NCBI RefSeq assembly: GCF_021325795.1
Contig: NZ_JAHPZX010000002.1
Location: 1,054,001 to 1,118,000 of the forward strand
Source of the DNA: Bordetella sp. LUAb4
GTDB taxonomy: Bacteria > Pseudomonadota > Gammaproteobacteria > Burkholderiales > Burkholderiaceae_B
Direction of reading: 5' to 3'
DNA length: 64,000 nucleotides
Shown: one piece after another, positions 57,501 to 64,000 of the stretch
How positions within the stretch are numbered: position 1 is the stretch's first letter
Layout of the letters: each line of letters starts with the position of its first letter
Notes under the pieces: generated by a model
Databases searched by the model: none
What the model was told of the DNA's origin: nothing
What the model saw: only the letters and a program-made list of their open reading frames with translations
Made by a program: the position numbers and the translations under genes

Positions 57501-58388
57501 ATGACGGAAATCTTCGGCATCCCCTTGCAGGCGCTGTTGGGCCAATTGCTACTGGGGTTGGTCAACGGCTCTTTCTACGCCATGCTATCGCTGGGCCTGG
57601 CGGTCATTTTCGGCTTGCTGAATGTGATCAACTTCGCCCATGGCGCGCTCTACATGATGGGCGCCTTCGCCGCGTGGGCGGGCATGAATTATCTGGGCCT
57701 GAGCTATTGGGTCATGCTCATTCTGGGCCCGATCGTGGTGGGCATCTTTGGCATCATCATCGAGCGGCTGCTGCTGCGGCACCTCTATCGCCTCGACCAC
57801 CTGTATGGGCTGCTGCTGACCTTCGGCCTGACCCTGCTGATCGAGGGCCTGTTCCGCAGCGTCTACGGTGTGTCCGGCCAGCCTTATCCCCCGCCTGACG
57901 CCCTGCGCGGCGCCACCAACCTGGGCTTCATGATCCTGCCCAACTACCGTGCCTGGGTGGTGGTGGCTTCGCTGGTGGTCTGCCTGGGCACCTGGTTCGT
58001 CATCGAACGTACCCGCCTTGGCGCGCTGCTGCGCGCCGGCACCGAGAACCCGCGCCTGGTCGAGGCCTTCGGCGTCAACGTACCGCGCATGATCATGCTG
58101 ACGTATGGCTTCGGCGTGGGCCTGGCCGGATTCGCCGGCGTGCTGGCCGCGCCGGTGCTGCAGATTTCCCCGCTGATGGGTTCGAACCTGATCATCGTGG
58201 TGTTCGCCGTGGTGGTGATCGGCGGCATGGGCTCCATTCTGGGATCCATCCTGACCGGTCTGGGGCTGGGCGTGGTCGAAGGGCTGACCAAGGTCTTCTG
58301 GCCTGAAGCCTCCAGCACCGTGGTGTTCATCATCATGGCCATCGTTCTGCTGCTGCGTCCCGCCGGCCTGTTCGGGAAAGAAAAATGA
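57501..58388 (+). CDS. livH: branched-chain amino-acid ABC permease LivH
   Basis: An inner-membrane permease of 295 aa with about eight hydrophobic segments. Family markers: GLVNGSFYAMLSLGLAVIFGL at the start, INFAHGALYM and the late GGMGSILGSILTGLGLGVVEG. It forms the channel with LivM. Its stop overlaps the livM start by 4 bp. Confidence 0.94.
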   Translation: MTEIFGIPLQALLGQLLLGLVNGSFYAMLSLGLAVIFGLLNVINFAHGALYMMGAFAAWAGMNYLGLSYWVMLILGPIVVGIFGIIIERLLLRHLYRLDHLYGLLLTFGLTLLIEGLFRSVYGVSGQPYPPPDALRGATNLGFMILPNYRAWVVVASLVVCLGTWFVIERTRLGALLRAGTENPRLVEAFGVNVPRMIMLTYGFGVGLAGFAGVLAAPVLQISPLMGSNLIIVVFAVVVIGGMGSILGSILTGLGLGVVEGLTKVFWPEASSTVVFIIMAIVLLLRPAGLFGKEK

Positions 58389-59380
58389 ATCGACAAATCG
58401 CTGCCTATGTCGTCCTGGCCGTCCTGCTGGCTTTGCTGCCTTTCATGGGGGTGTATCCCATCTTCGCCATGAAGGTGATGTGCTACGCCCTGTTCGCCTG
58501 CGCATTCAACCTGCTGCTGGGTTTCACCGGATTGCTGTCCTTCGGCCATGCGGCCTTCCTGGGTGCCGCCGCCTACGCCACGGGCCATGCGCTGAAGGTG
58601 TGGGGCCTGCCCACTGAAGCGGGGCTGCTGTTCGGCGTCGCGGTGGCCGCCCTGCTGGGCCTGGCGGTGGGCATTCTGGCCATCCGCCGCAGCGGCATCT
58701 ACTTCGCCATGATCACGCTGGCCATGTCGCAGATGGTGTTCTTCTTCTTTCTGCAGGCGCACTTCACCGGTGGCGAGGACGGCCTGCAGAACGTGCCGCG
58801 CGGCCACCTGTTCGGCTTCATCGACCTGCGCCAGGACATCAATCTGTACTACCTGGTATTCGGCCTGTTCGTGATTGGCTTTGCCATCATCTGGCGCGCC
58901 ATCAATTCGCCGTTCGGCCAGGTGCTCAAGGCCTTGCGGGAAAACGAGCCGCGCGCGATTTCGCTGGGCTATGACGTCGACCGCTTCAAGCTGCTGGCCT
59001 TCGTGCTGTCGGCCGCGCTGGCCGGCCTGGCTGGCTCGGCCAAGACCCTGGTGTTCGTGTCGGCGACCTTGTCCGATGCCACCTGGCAGATGTCGGGCCT
59101 GGTGATCCTGATGACGCTCATCGGCGGCATGGGGACGTTCCTGGGGCCGGTGATCGGCGCCTTCATCGTGGTACTGCTGGAAAACAAAGTGGGCGATTTC
59201 GGCCAGGCCATGGCGACCTGGACCGGCGTGGACTGGTTCCGCCAGTTGGGGGAATCGGTCACCATCGTGATCGGCCTGATCTTCGTGATCTGCGTGATGG
59301 CTTTCCGCCGCGGCATCGCCGGGGAACTGCAGGCGCTATTGCAGAAGCGCCGTGCCCCGCGCGGCACTACCGCGGCCTGA
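58385..59380 (+). CDS. livM: branched-chain amino-acid ABC permease LivM
   Basis: The second permease, 331 aa, with about nine hydrophobic segments. FNLLLGFTGLLSFGHAAFLG near the start and the late GLVILMTLIGGMGTFLGPVIGA are family signatures. The ATPase-coupling loop is around LRENEPRAISLGYDV. It ends the liv operon; the stop codon falls in a CTGATC-type repeat and a hairpin. Confidence 0.94.
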   Translation: MNRQIAAYVVLAVLLALLPFMGVYPIFAMKVMCYALFACAFNLLLGFTGLLSFGHAAFLGAAAYATGHALKVWGLPTEAGLLFGVAVAALLGLAVGILAIRRSGIYFAMITLAMSQMVFFFFLQAHFTGGEDGLQNVPRGHLFGFIDLRQDINLYYLVFGLFVIGFAIIWRAINSPFGQVLKALRENEPRAISLGYDVDRFKLLAFVLSAALAGLAGSAKTLVFVSATLSDATWQMSGLVILMTLIGGMGTFLGPVIGAFIVVLLENKVGDFGQAMATWTGVDWFRQLGESVTIVIGLIFVICVMAFRRGIAGELQALLQKRRAPRGTTAA

Positions 59381-59480
59381 TCAAGACAGCACGATCATGC
59401 GGCCATCGTGCCGCATGATCTGATGGCTTGATCTCCTCGCCTGATCCCCTCGCGTGATCCCCCTCGCCGATCATCGGCGA
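59377..59480. repeat. hairpin and degenerate CTGATC repeats after livM
   Basis: The livM stop starts a run of (C/T)TGATC-like hexamers (59377, near 59419, 59428, 59440, 59453). A perfect 11-bp inverted repeat GATCATGCGGC/GCCGCATGATC lies at 59393-59420. It may end or process the liv transcript. It resembles the repeat at 10555-10626. Confidence 0.6.
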
Positions 59481-59622
59481 AATCCCCAGGCGTAATCGCG
59501 CGCCCTTCCGGGGTTGCAGTCCGATACCTTTCATGTACACCTCCGCGTGGCGAGCGCAGCCTGCCACGTGCCTTTTGAGCGTTAGGATGGCGACGGCTAC
59601 CAGACCTGATGCCAGAGGACTC

Positions 59623-60681
59623 ATGTACAAGCGTATCGCCTCCCATTTGCCGGCCTTGACGTGTACCGTCTGGCTCGCCAGCGTGCCCGCCGCGGCCGCA
59701 CAGGCCACGGGCAAGGGCAACCTCGTCAGCGGCGCGCAACAGTCGCGCGACCAATGGGGTGCCCACATCGTGTCGTTGAGCCGCACGCTGTTCGACGGCA
59801 AGGTCGTGGCGAAAGCGAACTGCGCGAACGAGCCGTCATATACATGCACCGGCCTCATGCTGTCGGCCTTTGAAGCGCAAGATCTCGATTATTGGTTCTC
59901 GCCCAATCCGTACAACAACAAGCTGTCGATGAGCTATGTCATCAAGTCGACGGCCAAAGGCCCCAACAAGGTCATCTACGGCGGTTCCGGGTACATCATG
60001 TGGCCCAACGGCACGCTGGCGGTGGAATTGGCCCAGCGTGGACTCAACAACAATGCCTTTCCCGCCGTTTACCGTTGCGGCTTCGCCCAGGATGCCGCCA
60101 CCGACTTCAGGACGGATAATGGCTGCGGCGACTTCACGCCCGTGGTCCCCACGGACAGGGCGGGACCATGCCAGGCGCAAGGCATCACGACAGCGGCACA
60201 GTGGTTGGCTACCTATGGCAAAGGCGACCTGATCACGCAGCAATGCGGCTTCACGCTGCAAGTATCGCCGGCTGCCGACAAACAGGCCTTCGGCGTCGTG
60301 GAGCAAATCCAGAACACGCTGCTGGACACGAACAATACCAACTTGTTCGGCTCTTACAACGAAATCGTCATGCAAGCCTGGCCTGATCTCCAGCCGTCGC
60401 GCGTGCCCTTGTTCGCCTTCTTCTACGTCGAGCCAAACAGCAAGCCGAAGCTGGTCGCGCCGGTCCCGCGCGAGGGCAGGAAAGGCAGGCAGGTTCTTCT
60501 CAACCCGGCGGGCGACCTCGATCAGTCGCGGCAGGAACAACTCAATTACTACCGCAAGGCGAATATCTTCGCGCCCATTATCCGGCTGTCTGGAAACGCC
60601 TGGGAGCAACTGCGCATGTCCTACATCGACACGGACCAGTCGCCCGGAATTCCGTCGACCGTCACTGTTTTGCCGCAATAA
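59623..60681 (+). CDS. secreted six-cysteine protein, tandem paralogue 1
   Basis: A 352-aa protein with a Sec signal (MYKRIASHLPALTCTVWL, cleavage near AAAAQA). The mature part has six Cys in fixed places: NCANEPSYTC, YRCGF, NGCGDF, GPCQAQG and QQCGF. It is rich in aromatic residues and has W-F-S-P-N-P, GSGYIMWP and SYNEIVM blocks. No standard domain is certain. From memory the Cys/aromatic spacing recalls the halovibrin (HvnA-like) secreted enzymes, low confidence. It shares upstream and coding sequence with copy 3. Next copy 43 bp downstream. I chose the ATG that starts the signal peptide. Confidence 0.8.
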   Translation: MYKRIASHLPALTCTVWLASVPAAAAQATGKGNLVSGAQQSRDQWGAHIVSLSRTLFDGKVVAKANCANEPSYTCTGLMLSAFEAQDLDYWFSPNPYNNKLSMSYVIKSTAKGPNKVIYGGSGYIMWPNGTLAVELAQRGLNNNAFPAVYRCGFAQDAATDFRTDNGCGDFTPVVPTDRAGPCQAQGITTAAQWLATYGKGDLITQQCGFTLQVSPAADKQAFGVVEQIQNTLLDTNNTNLFGSYNEIVMQAWPDLQPSRVPLFAFFYVEPNSKPKLVAPVPREGRKGRQVLLNPAGDLDQSRQEQLNYYRKANIFAPIIRLSGNAWEQLRMSYIDTDQSPGIPSTVTVLPQ

Positions 60682-60724
60682 CGCGCGCTGGCGACGTCCT
60701 GCCAGACCCAACTCCGGAGAAGCC

Positions 60725-61789
60725 ATGTACAAGCGTATCGTTTTCCAATCGTTAGCCGTCGTTTGTGCCGTGGGGCTCGGCAGTGCCCCCGCCGCCGCGG
60801 CCGCAGGCACGACCCCCACCAAGGCCAACCTCGTCAGCGGTGCGCAACAATCGCGTGACCAATGGGGTGCCCACATCGTGTCGTTGAGCCGCACGCTGTT
60901 CGACGGCAAGGTGGTGTCGAAGGCGAACTGCGCGAACGAGCCGTCATACACCTGCACCGGTCTCATGCTGTCGGGCTTCGAAGCGCAAGGTCCCGACTAC
61001 TGGTTCTCGACCAATCCTGACAACAACAAGTTTTCGATGAGCTATGTCATCAAATCCACGGCCAGAGGAACCGGCCATGTCATCTACGGCGGGTCCGGGT
61101 ACATCATGTGGCCCAGCAGCACGCTGGCGGTGGAATTGGCCCAGCGGGGACTGAAGAACAATGCCTTCCCCGCGATCTACCGTTGCGCCTTCGTCCAGGA
61201 TGCCTTCACGACCACGCGAACGGACAGCGGCTGCGGCGACTTCCGCGACCCGAACCCGTCGGACAAGGCGGGACCTTGCCAGGCACAGGGGATCAAGACC
61301 GCGGCGCAGTGGCTGGAAACCTACGGCAAAGGCGACTTGGTCATACAACAATGCGGCTTCACCCTGCAGGTGTCACCCGCCGCGGACAAGCAGGCTTTCA
61401 ACGCCGCCGAGGAAGCCCAGAAAGCACTGCTGGACGCCAAGCACACTGGGCCCTTCGGCTCGTATAACGAAATCGTCATGGCACCCTGGCCGGAACTCCA
61501 GCCGGCACGGGTACCCTTGTTCGCGTTCTTTTACGTCGCGCCGGATACCAAAAAGGCGTTGATGACGCCGGACGCCGCCCAGCGCAAGAATCCCAGAAAG
61601 GTCCTCCTGACCCCTGAGGGCGATCTGGATCAAGTGAAGCGGCAACAGCTTAATTACTACAACAAAGCCAAGGTCTTCGCGCCCATCATCAGAATGTCCG
61701 GAAACTCGTGGGAAAAACTGGTCCTGTCCTATAAGAACACGGACCAGTCCCCAGGCATTCCGGCCACCGTCACCGTCCTGCCGCAATAG
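60725..61789 (+). CDS. secreted six-cysteine protein, tandem paralogue 2
   Basis: A 354-aa paralogue with a Sec signal (MYKRIVFQSLAVVCAV, cleavage near AAAA). The six mature Cys are at residues 69, 77, 154, 170, 185 and 210. Early part nearly identical to copy 1 (56 identical bases at 60857-60912 and 59749-59804). The last third diverges from copies 1 and 3 (VAPDTKKALMTPDAAQ). It ends NTDQSPGIPATVTVLPQ, like the others. GGAGAAGCC lies before the ATG. The most diverged copy; function unknown, possibly a specialised variant. Confidence 0.8.
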   Translation: MYKRIVFQSLAVVCAVGLGSAPAAAAAGTTPTKANLVSGAQQSRDQWGAHIVSLSRTLFDGKVVSKANCANEPSYTCTGLMLSGFEAQGPDYWFSTNPDNNKFSMSYVIKSTARGTGHVIYGGSGYIMWPSSTLAVELAQRGLKNNAFPAIYRCAFVQDAFTTTRTDSGCGDFRDPNPSDKAGPCQAQGIKTAAQWLETYGKGDLVIQQCGFTLQVSPAADKQAFNAAEEAQKALLDAKHTGPFGSYNEIVMAPWPELQPARVPLFAFFYVAPDTKKALMTPDAAQRKNPRKVLLTPEGDLDQVKRQQLNYYNKAKVFAPIIRMSGNSWEKLVLSYKNTDQSPGIPATVTVLPQ

Positions 61790-61878
61790 TCGAGCGGAAG
61801 GAAATGGGCACCTGTGTCCCCCGGACGGCTTTGCGCGCCAGGATGACAACGACTACCAGGCCTGACGCCGGAGAACTC

Positions 61879-62943
61879 ATGTACAAGCGTATCGTTTCCC
61901 AATTGCTGGCCTTGACGTGTACCGTCTGGCTCGGTAGCGCGCCCGCCGTCGCGGAAAACACGGCCAACACCAAGGCCAACCTCGTCAGCGGTGCGCAGCA
62001 ATCGCGCGACCAATGGGGTGCCCACATCGTGGGACTGAGCCGGACACTGTTCGACGGCAAGGTGGTGTCGAAAGCGAACTGCGCGAACGAGCCCGCTTAC
62101 ACCTGCACTGGCCTCATGCTGTCGGCCTTTGAACCGCAAGATACCGATTACTGGTTCTCGCCCAATCCGTCCGGCGGCAAACTGTCGATGAGCTATGTGA
62201 TCAAAGCCACGTCCAGAGGATCCAACGCGGCCATGTTCGCCGGCTCCGGCTATATCTTGTGGCCCAGCAGCACGCTGGCGACAGAGTTGGCTCAACGTGG
62301 ACTGAAAAACAATGCCTTCCCGACCATCTACCGTTGCGGCTTCGCCCAGGATGCCTATACCGACAACAGAACGGATAAAGGCTGCGGCACGTACACAGTG
62401 AATGGCTCCGCGCTCAAAAACACAGGTCCCTGCCAGGCGCAAGGCATCACGACGGCGGCACAGTGGTTGGCTGCCTACGGCAACGGCGATCTGATGACGC
62501 AGCAATGCGGCTTCATCCTGCAAATATCGCCGGCCGCCGACAAGCAGGCCTTTGGCGTCGTAGAGCAAATCCAGAACACGCTGCTGGACAGGAACACGAC
62601 CAGCTCCGTCGGCTCCTACAACGAGATCGTCCTGCAAGCCTGGCCTGAACTCGAGCCGTCACGGGTGCCCTTGCTCGCCTTCTTCTATGTCGAGCCAAAT
62701 AGCGCGCGGAAACTGATCGCACCGGTCTCCCGCGAGGGCAAGAAAGGCAGGCAGGTTCTTCTCAACCCAGCGGGCAGCCTCTATATATCGCAGGTGGAAC
62801 AGCTCAATTACTACAAAAAAGCGAAGGTCTTCGCGCCCATTATTCGCCTGTCCGGTAATTCCTGGGACCAATTGCGCATGTCCTACATCGACACGGACCA
62901 GTCGCCCGGGATTCCGTCGACCGTCACTGTCTTGCCGCAATAG
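61879..62943 (+). CDS. secreted six-cysteine protein, tandem paralogue 3
   Basis: A 354-aa paralogue with a Sec signal (MYKRIVSQLLALTCTVWL, cleavage near APAVAE). All six Cys are conserved. Its C-terminal third is close to copy 1 (VEPNSARKLIAPVSREGKKGR), and the upstream 45 bp also match copy 1, so copies 1 and 3 share a duplication unit including the leader. The middle has its own insertion (TYTVNGSALKNT). GGAGAACTC precedes the ATG. It lies 89 bp after copy 2, probably in one operon. Confidence 0.8.
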   Translation: MYKRIVSQLLALTCTVWLGSAPAVAENTANTKANLVSGAQQSRDQWGAHIVGLSRTLFDGKVVSKANCANEPAYTCTGLMLSAFEPQDTDYWFSPNPSGGKLSMSYVIKATSRGSNAAMFAGSGYILWPSSTLATELAQRGLKNNAFPTIYRCGFAQDAYTDNRTDKGCGTYTVNGSALKNTGPCQAQGITTAAQWLAAYGNGDLMTQQCGFILQISPAADKQAFGVVEQIQNTLLDRNTTSSVGSYNEIVLQAWPELEPSRVPLLAFFYVEPNSARKLIAPVSREGKKGRQVLLNPAGSLYISQVEQLNYYKKAKVFAPIIRLSGNSWDQLRMSYIDTDQSPGIPSTVTVLPQ

Positions 62944-62954
62944 CGGACGATGAA

Positions 62955-62978
62955 AAAATGGCCTCCCCCAGGGGAGGC
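62955..62978 (-). terminator. left-facing terminator-like hairpin
   Basis: GCCTCCCC-CA-GGGGAGGC, followed on the minus strand by CCATTTTTT. On the plus strand there is no T-run. It lies 17 bp after the last paralogue's stop. It would stop leftward transcription entering the paralogue genes from acnA's side, or act as a stem-loop on the plus transcript. Confidence 0.55.
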
Positions 62979-63179
62979 AGTCATCCAGCACTGCCCAGGC
63001 GACGCGTGTCATGAACTCCGGCTAAGATCGGCAGGCGCATACAGTCCCCGCGAAAACTACCCAGGCAAGGCACTTGCAGGCGCCGCGACGATGGCGCGTC
63101 CCGCCCGGCAAAAACCAGGCGCGGCTCGCCACCCAACTCGCGTGTTTGCAAAAATAGGCGCAGAATAGGGTCTCGACCA

Positions 63180-63202
63180 GTCTTATATAAGACATAAGAC
63201 CA
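63180..63202. promoter_or_regulatory. palindromic operator candidate before acnA
   Basis: A perfect 14-bp palindrome GTCTTATATAAGAC at 63180-63193 followed by ATAAGACC, giving three related TCTTAT/ATAAGA half-sites. It is the most A/T-rich patch of the gap and lies about 200 bp before acnA. A regulator of the GntR type would fit such a site, but that is an inference. Confidence 0.5.
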
Positions 63203-63387
63203 GGATTGATCACTGGGCTTGGCCCTTGTTGATCTACCGGGCTATCCCCCCGGGAAAATCCCGGTTGGTCCAAGGGTTGATCCCCTGAACTACGCGCCGC
63301 CAGCGGGCCGTTGTCCCATCCGGATGACAAGCCCGCCGAAACGCCTGAAAATGGCAGCTTTTGCGGACAACAACCACGGAGTCCATC

Positions 63388-64000
63388 ATGCCGCACAACA
63401 CGTTCGACACCCTCAAGACATTCAAAATCGGTGGCAAGTCCTGTCAGTACTATTCCCTTCCGGCTCTGGGCAAGGCCCTGGGCGTGGACGTCCAGCGACT
63501 GCCCGTCTCGATGCGCGTGGTGCTGGAATCCGTGCTGCGCAACTGCGACGGCCAGAAAGTGACCGAGGAACATGTCAAGCAGTTGGCGAACTGGCAGCCG
63601 ACCGCCAAGCGCGAAGAAGAAATTCCCTTCGTCGTCGCGCGCGTGGTGCTGCAGGATTTCACCGGTGTACCGCTGCTGGCCGACATCGCCGCCATGCGTT
63701 CCGTGGCGGCCTCCATGGGCAAGGATCCCAAGGCCATCGAGCCTCTGGTGCCGGTGGACCTGGTGGTCGATCACTCCGTGATGATCGATTACTTCGGCAC
63801 CCAGAAAGCGCTGGACCTGAACATGAAACTGGAATTCCAGCGCAACCAGGAACGCTACCAGTTCATGAAGTGGGGCATGCAAGCCTTCGACACCTTCGGT
63901 GTGGTGCCCCCGGGCTTCGGCATCGTCCACCAGGTCAACCTCGAATACCTGGCGCGCGGCGTACATAAGGCCAATAACGTCTATTACCCCGATTCGCTGG
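63388..64000 (+). CDS. acnA: aconitate hydratase, 3' truncated by the window edge
   Basis: The first 204 residues of an AcnA-type aconitase, which interconverts citrate and isocitrate in the TCA cycle. The start [23 protein letters not shown] and the blocks [36 protein letters not shown] and [15 protein letters not shown] are typical. The cluster-binding cysteines lie beyond the window. GGAG lies 6 bp before the ATG at 63388. The upstream gap carries a palindromic operator candidate. Confidence 0.95.

What the first reader, a model, noticed from the sequence alone, without database searches (positions are those of the whole stretch)
59623..62943. Three tandem secreted six-cysteine paralogues of unknown function
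Seen: three adjacent genes, each with a Sec signal and about 325 mature residues, six fixed Cys, and shared blocks (NLVSGAQQSRDQWGAH, GSGYIMWP, KAGPCQAQG, SYNEIVM, QSPGIP-TVTVLPQ). The spacing of 43 and 89 bp suggests one operon. Tandem triplication of a disulfide-rich exoprotein suggests dosage or diversification, as for a toxin, effector or surface-binding factor. No immunity gene, secretion gene or regulator lies beside them. This is the best candidate here for an undescribed system.
Basis: partly seen in the sequence, partly recalled or inferred. Interest (0 to 1): 0.75.

Follow-up and report, generated by a model that had tools for sequence, protein, structure and literature searches.

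The report
Tandem secreted halovibrin-like protein genes
Three neighbouring genes make exported, cysteine-rich relatives of halovibrins (secreted enzymes that break down NAD), but all three have changed the residues that normally grip NAD, so they look like a tandem-copied branch that has kept the fold and probably changed the chemistry.

Summary

Unusual: (1) The trio carries Ser, Ile and Ser/Ala where 66 of 66 other domains carry Arg, Arg and Asp; the first fits, by order and strand, the NAD-diphosphate Arg of CteC. Six Cys and the presumed catalytic Glu are kept; dN/dS is 0.27-0.37. Ordinary NADase activity is doubtful, though the proteins are preserved. (2) The trio fills a livM-acnA gap of about 4.0 kb that is about 0.4-0.5 kb in three sister species. 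(3) Tandem copies recur: 9 of 14 positive genomes in the family of Luteibacter anthropi, itself with 17 matches.

Verdict: a divergent branch of a known family.

The parts
59623..60681 (+). Gene A, halovibrin-family protein with export signal, 352 aa
   Evidence: profile of 9 relatives 139.7 bits against a best shuffle of 6.5 bits
60725..61789 (+). Gene B, halovibrin-family protein with export signal, 354 aa (its mature part was modelled)
61879..62943 (+). Gene C, halovibrin-family protein with export signal, 354 aa; closest to A, the duplication includes 49 bp upstream
   Evidence: 146.5 bits; DNA match A/C
60725..60802 (+). Sec-type signal peptide of B (residues 1-26; A and C alike), judged by eye
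   Evidence: no lipobox seen by eye, unlike the fourth copy in the same genome
60971..60973 (+). Codon 83 of B (Ser), at the position that is Arg in 66 of 66 non-window domains; on strand 54-58 of the mature model
   Evidence: model
61049..61057 (+). Codons 109-111 of B (Ile-Lys-Ser), where relatives have Arg-x-Asp
61469..61471 (+). Codon 249 of B (Glu), the presumed catalytic Glu, kept in all three
   Evidence: E in 65 of 66 non-window domains and in all three
59381..63389 (.). livM-acnA interval that holds the trio; about 0.4-0.5 kb in three sister species. Similarity to the sister interval of G005 stops near 59364 and resumes near 62953
58385..59380 (+). Upstream neighbour: branched-chain amino-acid ABC transporter permease (LivM-like; name recalled), not part of the finding
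63390..64000 (+). Downstream neighbour: start of an aconitase-like gene (name recalled), runs off the window
62961..62978 (.). GC-rich hairpin 17 bp after gene C; the T-run lies on the - strand side

Best explanation
The trio is a lineage-specific tandem array of exported halovibrin-family proteins with a CteC-like mono-ADP-ribosyltransferase fold, probably held by three disulfides. Likely path: Sec export, disulfide folding in the periplasm, release to the outside (possibly by a type II secretion system, whose secretin is in the genome), then action on something extracellular. The founding family members are reported to hydrolyse NAD+ outside the cell. These three have kept the fold, the cysteines and the presumed catalytic Glu, but have lost the Arg that should hold the NAD diphosphate and a second Arg-x-Asp pair. 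The mechanism I commit to: they no longer act as ordinary NAD glycohydrolases and work either by binding a ligand or protein through the old active-site groove, or by a changed transferase specificity. Shown here: homology, fold match of the models, residue changes, purifying selection, tandem duplication, presence at this place in one lineage only among six species. Inferred: export route, disulfide pairing, loss of NAD chemistry, the target.
Confidence: 0.65

Rival explanations
1. The three are ordinary active halovibrins: secreted NAD glycohydrolases in which other residues took over NAD-diphosphate binding; the array gives dosage.
For: Presumed catalytic Glu, Gln308 and all six Cys kept; dN/dS 0.27-0.37; other genomes keep tandem copies with the canonical residues.
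Against: All three lack Arg, Arg and Asp found in 66 of 66 other domains, and in 81 of 81, 81 of 82 and 82 of 82 of a wider set that have a letter there. In CteC the mutant of the Arg that corresponds by strand order is inactive (PMC10810742 passages).
Confidence: 0.2
2. Secreted toxins or effectors that ADP-ribosylate a host or competitor protein, with changed specificity, as CteC does to ubiquitin.
For: CteC is the best structural match; the proteins carry export signals and the family expands in tandem.
Against: CteC has the R-S-E triad with Arg and a ubiquitin-recruiting insertion (PMC10810742 passages; type III export recalled); the trio has Sec-type signals and a changed first Arg. P. 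[quoted passage not shown]
Confidence: 0.12
3. Decaying remnants: an acquired gene that lost its active site and triplicated by chance, no longer doing anything.
For: The only other relative found in the genus, in G003 (34% identity), has an in-frame stop; no sister species has the genes at this place.
Against: All three frames are open; dN/dS is below 0.4 in all three pairs and below 0.53 in all 18 sixty-codon blocks; all six Cys are kept in each copy.
Confidence: 0.05

Closest known systems
Halovibrins HvnA/HvnB of Vibrio fischeri and HvnA (PA1914) of Pseudomonas aeruginosa
   Same: Homologous domain (through the Serratia and Tistrella relatives), N-terminal export signal, six conserved Cys, conserved Glu (literature via PMC3510237 passages)
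   Different: The trio lacks three charged residues kept by 66 of 66 other domains in the main set, has an insertion between the FFY strand and the last helix and a longer C-terminus, and no DUF2599 domain. V. fischeri and P. aeruginosa sequences themselves were not compared here.
CteC of Chromobacterium violaceum (threonine-ubiquitin mono-ADP-ribosyltransferase)
   Same: Best fold match for both models; Glu on a strand in comparable order
   Different: 8-11% identity in the VIA alignments, no sequence match in the PDB profile search; CteC has Arg in R-S-E, the trio has Ser there and Sec-type signals
Halovibrin-domain arrays of Luteibacter anthropi and an IMG/VR contig, and the multiple copies of Erwinia typographi
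   Same: Several copies of the same domain, in L. anthropi and the IMG/VR contig in tandem and some fused two to a protein
   Different: Their full-length domains in the 85-domain set keep Arg, Arg, Asp wherever they have a letter there; several Luteibacter copies look like lipoproteins by eye

Membership tests
Halovibrin domain family (by descent) | Sequence homology over the whole domain | tested here: met
   140-147 bits against a window-free profile, best of 1000 shuffles 6.5; 138-143 bits with a 66-domain profile
Halovibrin domain family (by descent) | Six conserved cysteines | tested here: met
   Six of six in A, B and C; each Cys in 66 of 66 other domains
Halovibrin NAD glycohydrolase (by function) | Charged residues conserved in all other members of the main set (Arg, Arg, Asp) | tested here: not met
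   Ser, Ile and Ser/Ala in all three; R, R, D in 66 of 66 others. So they are filed as a divergent branch by descent, not as halovibrin NADases
Halovibrin NAD glycohydrolase (by function) | Conserved presumed catalytic Glu | tested here: met
   Glu249 of B and equivalents; E in 65 of 66 others
Halovibrin NAD glycohydrolase (by function) | NAD+ hydrolysis outside the cell | not testable with these tools
   No assay; founding papers not held
Halovibrin NAD glycohydrolase (by function) | Secretion | tested here: inconclusive
   Sec-type N-termini by eye; a type II secretin (TIGR02517, over cut-off) is in the genome; no export test
ADP-ribosyltransferase fold, R-S-E class | mART fold | tested here: met
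ADP-ribosyltransferase fold, R-S-E class | Arg of R-S-E on the first strand | tested here: not met
   Ser83 in B by alignment; the canonical relative has Arg there, on strand 35-40 of its model
CteC ubiquitin ADP-ribosyltransferases | Four-helix ubiquitin-recruiting insertion between strands 4 and 5 | not tested
   Described in PMC10810742 (passages); no superposition available
Halovibrin + DUF2599 architecture | C-terminal DUF2599 | tested here: not met
   No Pfam hit in A, B, C; PF10783 hits the Tistrella protein at 76.7 bits. The search of the window's genome found none, but no control genome rang either

The most novel reading that the evidence does not exclude
A secreted pseudo-ADP-ribosyltransferase array: halovibrin-fold proteins that have given up NAD chemistry under selection and been triplicated as extracellular binding proteins (for NAD or ADP-ribose, for a host or competitor surface, or as partners or decoys for active halovibrins), with tandem amplification being a general habit of a poorly annotated halovibrin/CteC-like superfamily.
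Probability: 0.35. Interest if true: 0.65.

Novelty: new variant of a known kind. Interest (0 to 1): 0.45.

Why it matters
Halovibrins are cited as secreted NAD-consuming enzymes, yet neither Pfam nor NCBIfam recognised these relatives, and the passages seen in five of the seven held papers that name them do not describe the fold. Placing the family in the CteC-like ADP-ribosyltransferase fold, showing multi-copy tandem arrays in scattered lineages, and finding a branch that keeps the fold but drops the presumed NAD-gripping residues gives a testable case of a secreted enzyme family turning into something else. A profile of the family would also let many 'hypothetical' secreted proteins be named.

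Tried and rejected
Pfam, NCBIfam, PADLOC: no family at E 1 or better for A, B, C; PHROGs only a chance match to C (E 0.41). PDB by sequence: nothing convincing with one protein (best E 1.1) or a 14-row profile (one match, E 5.1). Phage collection: no match for the Serratia halovibrin. Viral contigs: none with A3, one locus with A4. Toxin-immunity operon: not favoured, no partner gene between or directly beside the three, and none needed for a protein that folds outside the cytoplasm (inference). Diversifying selection: not seen. Phage cargo: no evident phage gene directly beside the trio, though L019 shows an array next to terminase and portal genes. Foldseek against viral models: one significant but unnamed match (G8DH01, E 3e-6), not followed. 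The DUF2599 search rang in 0 of 14 control genomes, so it says little. The genome-contig scan found 4 loci with two narrow peptide patterns; it is no census. Genome counts are lower bounds: a loose first look came first and at most 5, 6, 11, 11 and 5 candidates per genome were scored. Rows dropped: the 69-domain set kept only fetched loci with at least 230 profile positions (selected, whose script then failed; finished); the 85-domain set dropped 23 shorter pieces. L010 is not in either set because its frame is interrupted; it lacks the first Arg. In the 85-domain set one other row (L119) lacks the second Arg. Insert ends were not searched for direct repeats.

Full report
What is there. Three open genes lie head to tail on the + strand, 43 and 89 bp apart. 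Each encodes 352-354 aa with a Sec-type N-terminus (by eye) and six cysteines in the mature part. A and C share 83% DNA identity over 1116 bp including 49 bp before the start codon; A/B share 78% and B/C 76%. A simple sigma-70 consensus scan of 59300-63400 finds one match, near the acnA start and none in front of the trio; such scans say little.

What family it is. Pfam and NCBIfam give nothing at E 1 or better. A translated search of plasmids with gene B found relatives in 6 records, one annotated as a DUF2599 protein. In a Serratia plasmid a second relative is annotated halovibrin HvnB, and the same protein, full length, in another Serratia plasmid halovibrin HvnA. BLASTP of the Serratia HvnA hits A, B and C; a window-free profile of nine relatives scores them at 140-147 bits, while the best of 1000 shuffled controls reached 6.5. 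From PMC3510237 (passages only): P. aeruginosa HvnA consists of a signal peptide, a halovibrin domain and DUF2599, shares 44% identity with HvnA and HvnB of V. fischeri, and the latter are cited as secreted NAD+ glycohydrolases (Stabb, Reich and Ruby 2001; that paper is not held). The Tistrella relative has a halovibrin domain followed by DUF2599. Seven papers in the held library contain 'halovibrin'; I looked at the passages of five of the seven, and none of these passages describes the fold or tandem arrays. Two papers hold two or more of halovibrin, CteC, DUF2599 and 'ADP-ribosyltransferase fold'; by their occurrence counts neither names both halovibrin and CteC.

The changed site. In 69 full-length domains (66 outside the window, from the loci I fetched), 17 columns are at least 95% conserved outside the window. 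The trio keeps 12 of them (six Cys, two Gly, two Pro, Glu249, Gln308) and changes five: Arg to Ser83, Trp to Phe94 (a Trp lies next to it, so this may be a shift), Arg to Ile109, Asp to Ser/Ala111 and Phe to Leu/Met334. The 14-row alignment has no gap between Cys77 and Ser83 or around residues 104-111 in most rows, and a profile without window rows aligns Ser83 the same way in all three. In a wider set of 85 domains the first Arg is kept in 81 of 81 non-window rows with a letter, the second in 81 of 82, the Asp in 82 of 82. CteC uses R65, S97 and E220; R65 holds the NAD diphosphate and R65A had no activity (PMC10810742, passages). By order and strand, Ser83 of B (strand 54-58 of the model), Ser104/Ser106 (strand 77-82) and Glu249 (strand 222-226) take the R, S and E places. 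So the trio has the S and E but not the R. The interrupted relative in sister genome G003 also lacks the first Arg but keeps the second Arg and the Asp, so the change seems stepwise within this branch.

Selection and origin. dN/dS is 0.27 (A/B), 0.365 (A/C) and 0.348 (B/C), and below 0.53 in all 18 block comparisons. The trio forms one clade (100/100) on a branch of 2.2 changes per column, whose deeper place is unsure. Close relatives are rare: 2 of 6 genus genomes and 2 of 268 family genomes, both counts including the window's own; with a profile 1 of 399 in the order sample and 1 of 369 in the class sample, the own genome only; 4 of 398 in the phylum sample, the own genome and three with matches of 26-41% identity. 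These searches have a loose first look and cap the candidates scored, so they are lower bounds. In three sister species (G001, G002, G005) the livM-acnA interval is about 0.4-0.5 kb instead of about 4.0 kb; in the other two it is about 1.7 kb. None of the five has the genes at this place: four have no match and that of G003 lies elsewhere. Similarity to the sister interval of G005 stops near 59364 and resumes near 62953, at the hairpin after gene C, then again from 63137. The trio is thus most simply an insertion in this lineage. The ends were not searched for direct repeats. G+C of the trio is 60.4% against 63.8% for the window.

Tandem arrays elsewhere. Luteibacter anthropi has 17 matches and Erwinia typographi 7, with two-domain proteins in the former. 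In the family of L. anthropi (Rhodanobacteraceae, name recalled) 14 of 197 genomes are positive, L. anthropi and L. jiangsuensis included, and 9 of these 14 have same-strand neighbours within 1 kb. In the family of E. typographi 9 of 198 are positive; reading the coordinates, 3 of the 9 (G1241, G1316, G1323) have such neighbours, not counting two genomes whose paired matches are pieces of one gene. An IMG/VR contig has three two-domain copies and a partial one beside terminase and portal genes. Amplification thus recurs in the family, while the changed first Arg was seen only in the window's branch.

How it most likely works. Sec export, disulfide folding in the periplasm, possible type II release (a GspD over cut-off is in the genome), and action outside the cell. 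With the presumed NAD-gripping Arg gone in all three copies, ordinary NADase activity is doubtful; binding through the old groove or a changed transferase activity is the better guess. Export route, disulfide pairs, chemistry and target are all inference.

Verdict. A divergent, tandem-triplicated branch of a known secreted family, moderately interesting for its changed active site.

Noticed in passing
L040 (Luteibacter anthropi, G1020 C20:222500-242400) and G1020 as a whole: 17 halovibrin-domain matches in one genome; four ORFs in an 8 kb array carry two domains each, and several copies start with lipoprotein-like signals by eye.
   Followed up: partly
L019 233-9629 (IMG/VR contig 2513237339_000005): Terminase large subunit and portal genes directly followed by three two-domain halovibrins and one partial copy.
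   Followed up: partly
L004 1408-2499 (window's own genome, C10): A fourth, distant halovibrin copy in the same genome, lipoprotein-like by eye, with the canonical Arg, Arg and Asp.
   Followed up: partly
L010 1483-2532 (sister genome G003): A single relative of the trio (34% identity) with one in-frame stop, at a different chromosomal place.
   Followed up: partly
L006 1922-4723 and L051 396-3199 (Serratia plasmids): Two halovibrin-family genes lie on either side of a gene annotated lasR, hinting at quorum control.
   Followed up: no
hits H11-H15, H24-H28: A relative sits on five Vibrio parahaemolyticus plasmid records, four from shrimp and one from sediment; listed only, not fetched.
   Followed up: no
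L045 1193-2824, L041 609-2036 and 2664-4244, L047 1401-2990: Halovibrin domain followed by about 160-220 further residues with no Pfam match at E 0.1: possible further C-terminal domains.
   Followed up: no
window 62961-62978: A GC-rich hairpin after gene C with the T-run on the - strand side, so a poor terminator for the trio; a 28-base stretch like it is in the sister interval of G005, so it probably predates the trio.
   Followed up: no
BFVD G8DH01: One unnamed viral protein model matches the fold of gene B (E 3e-6).
   Followed up: no
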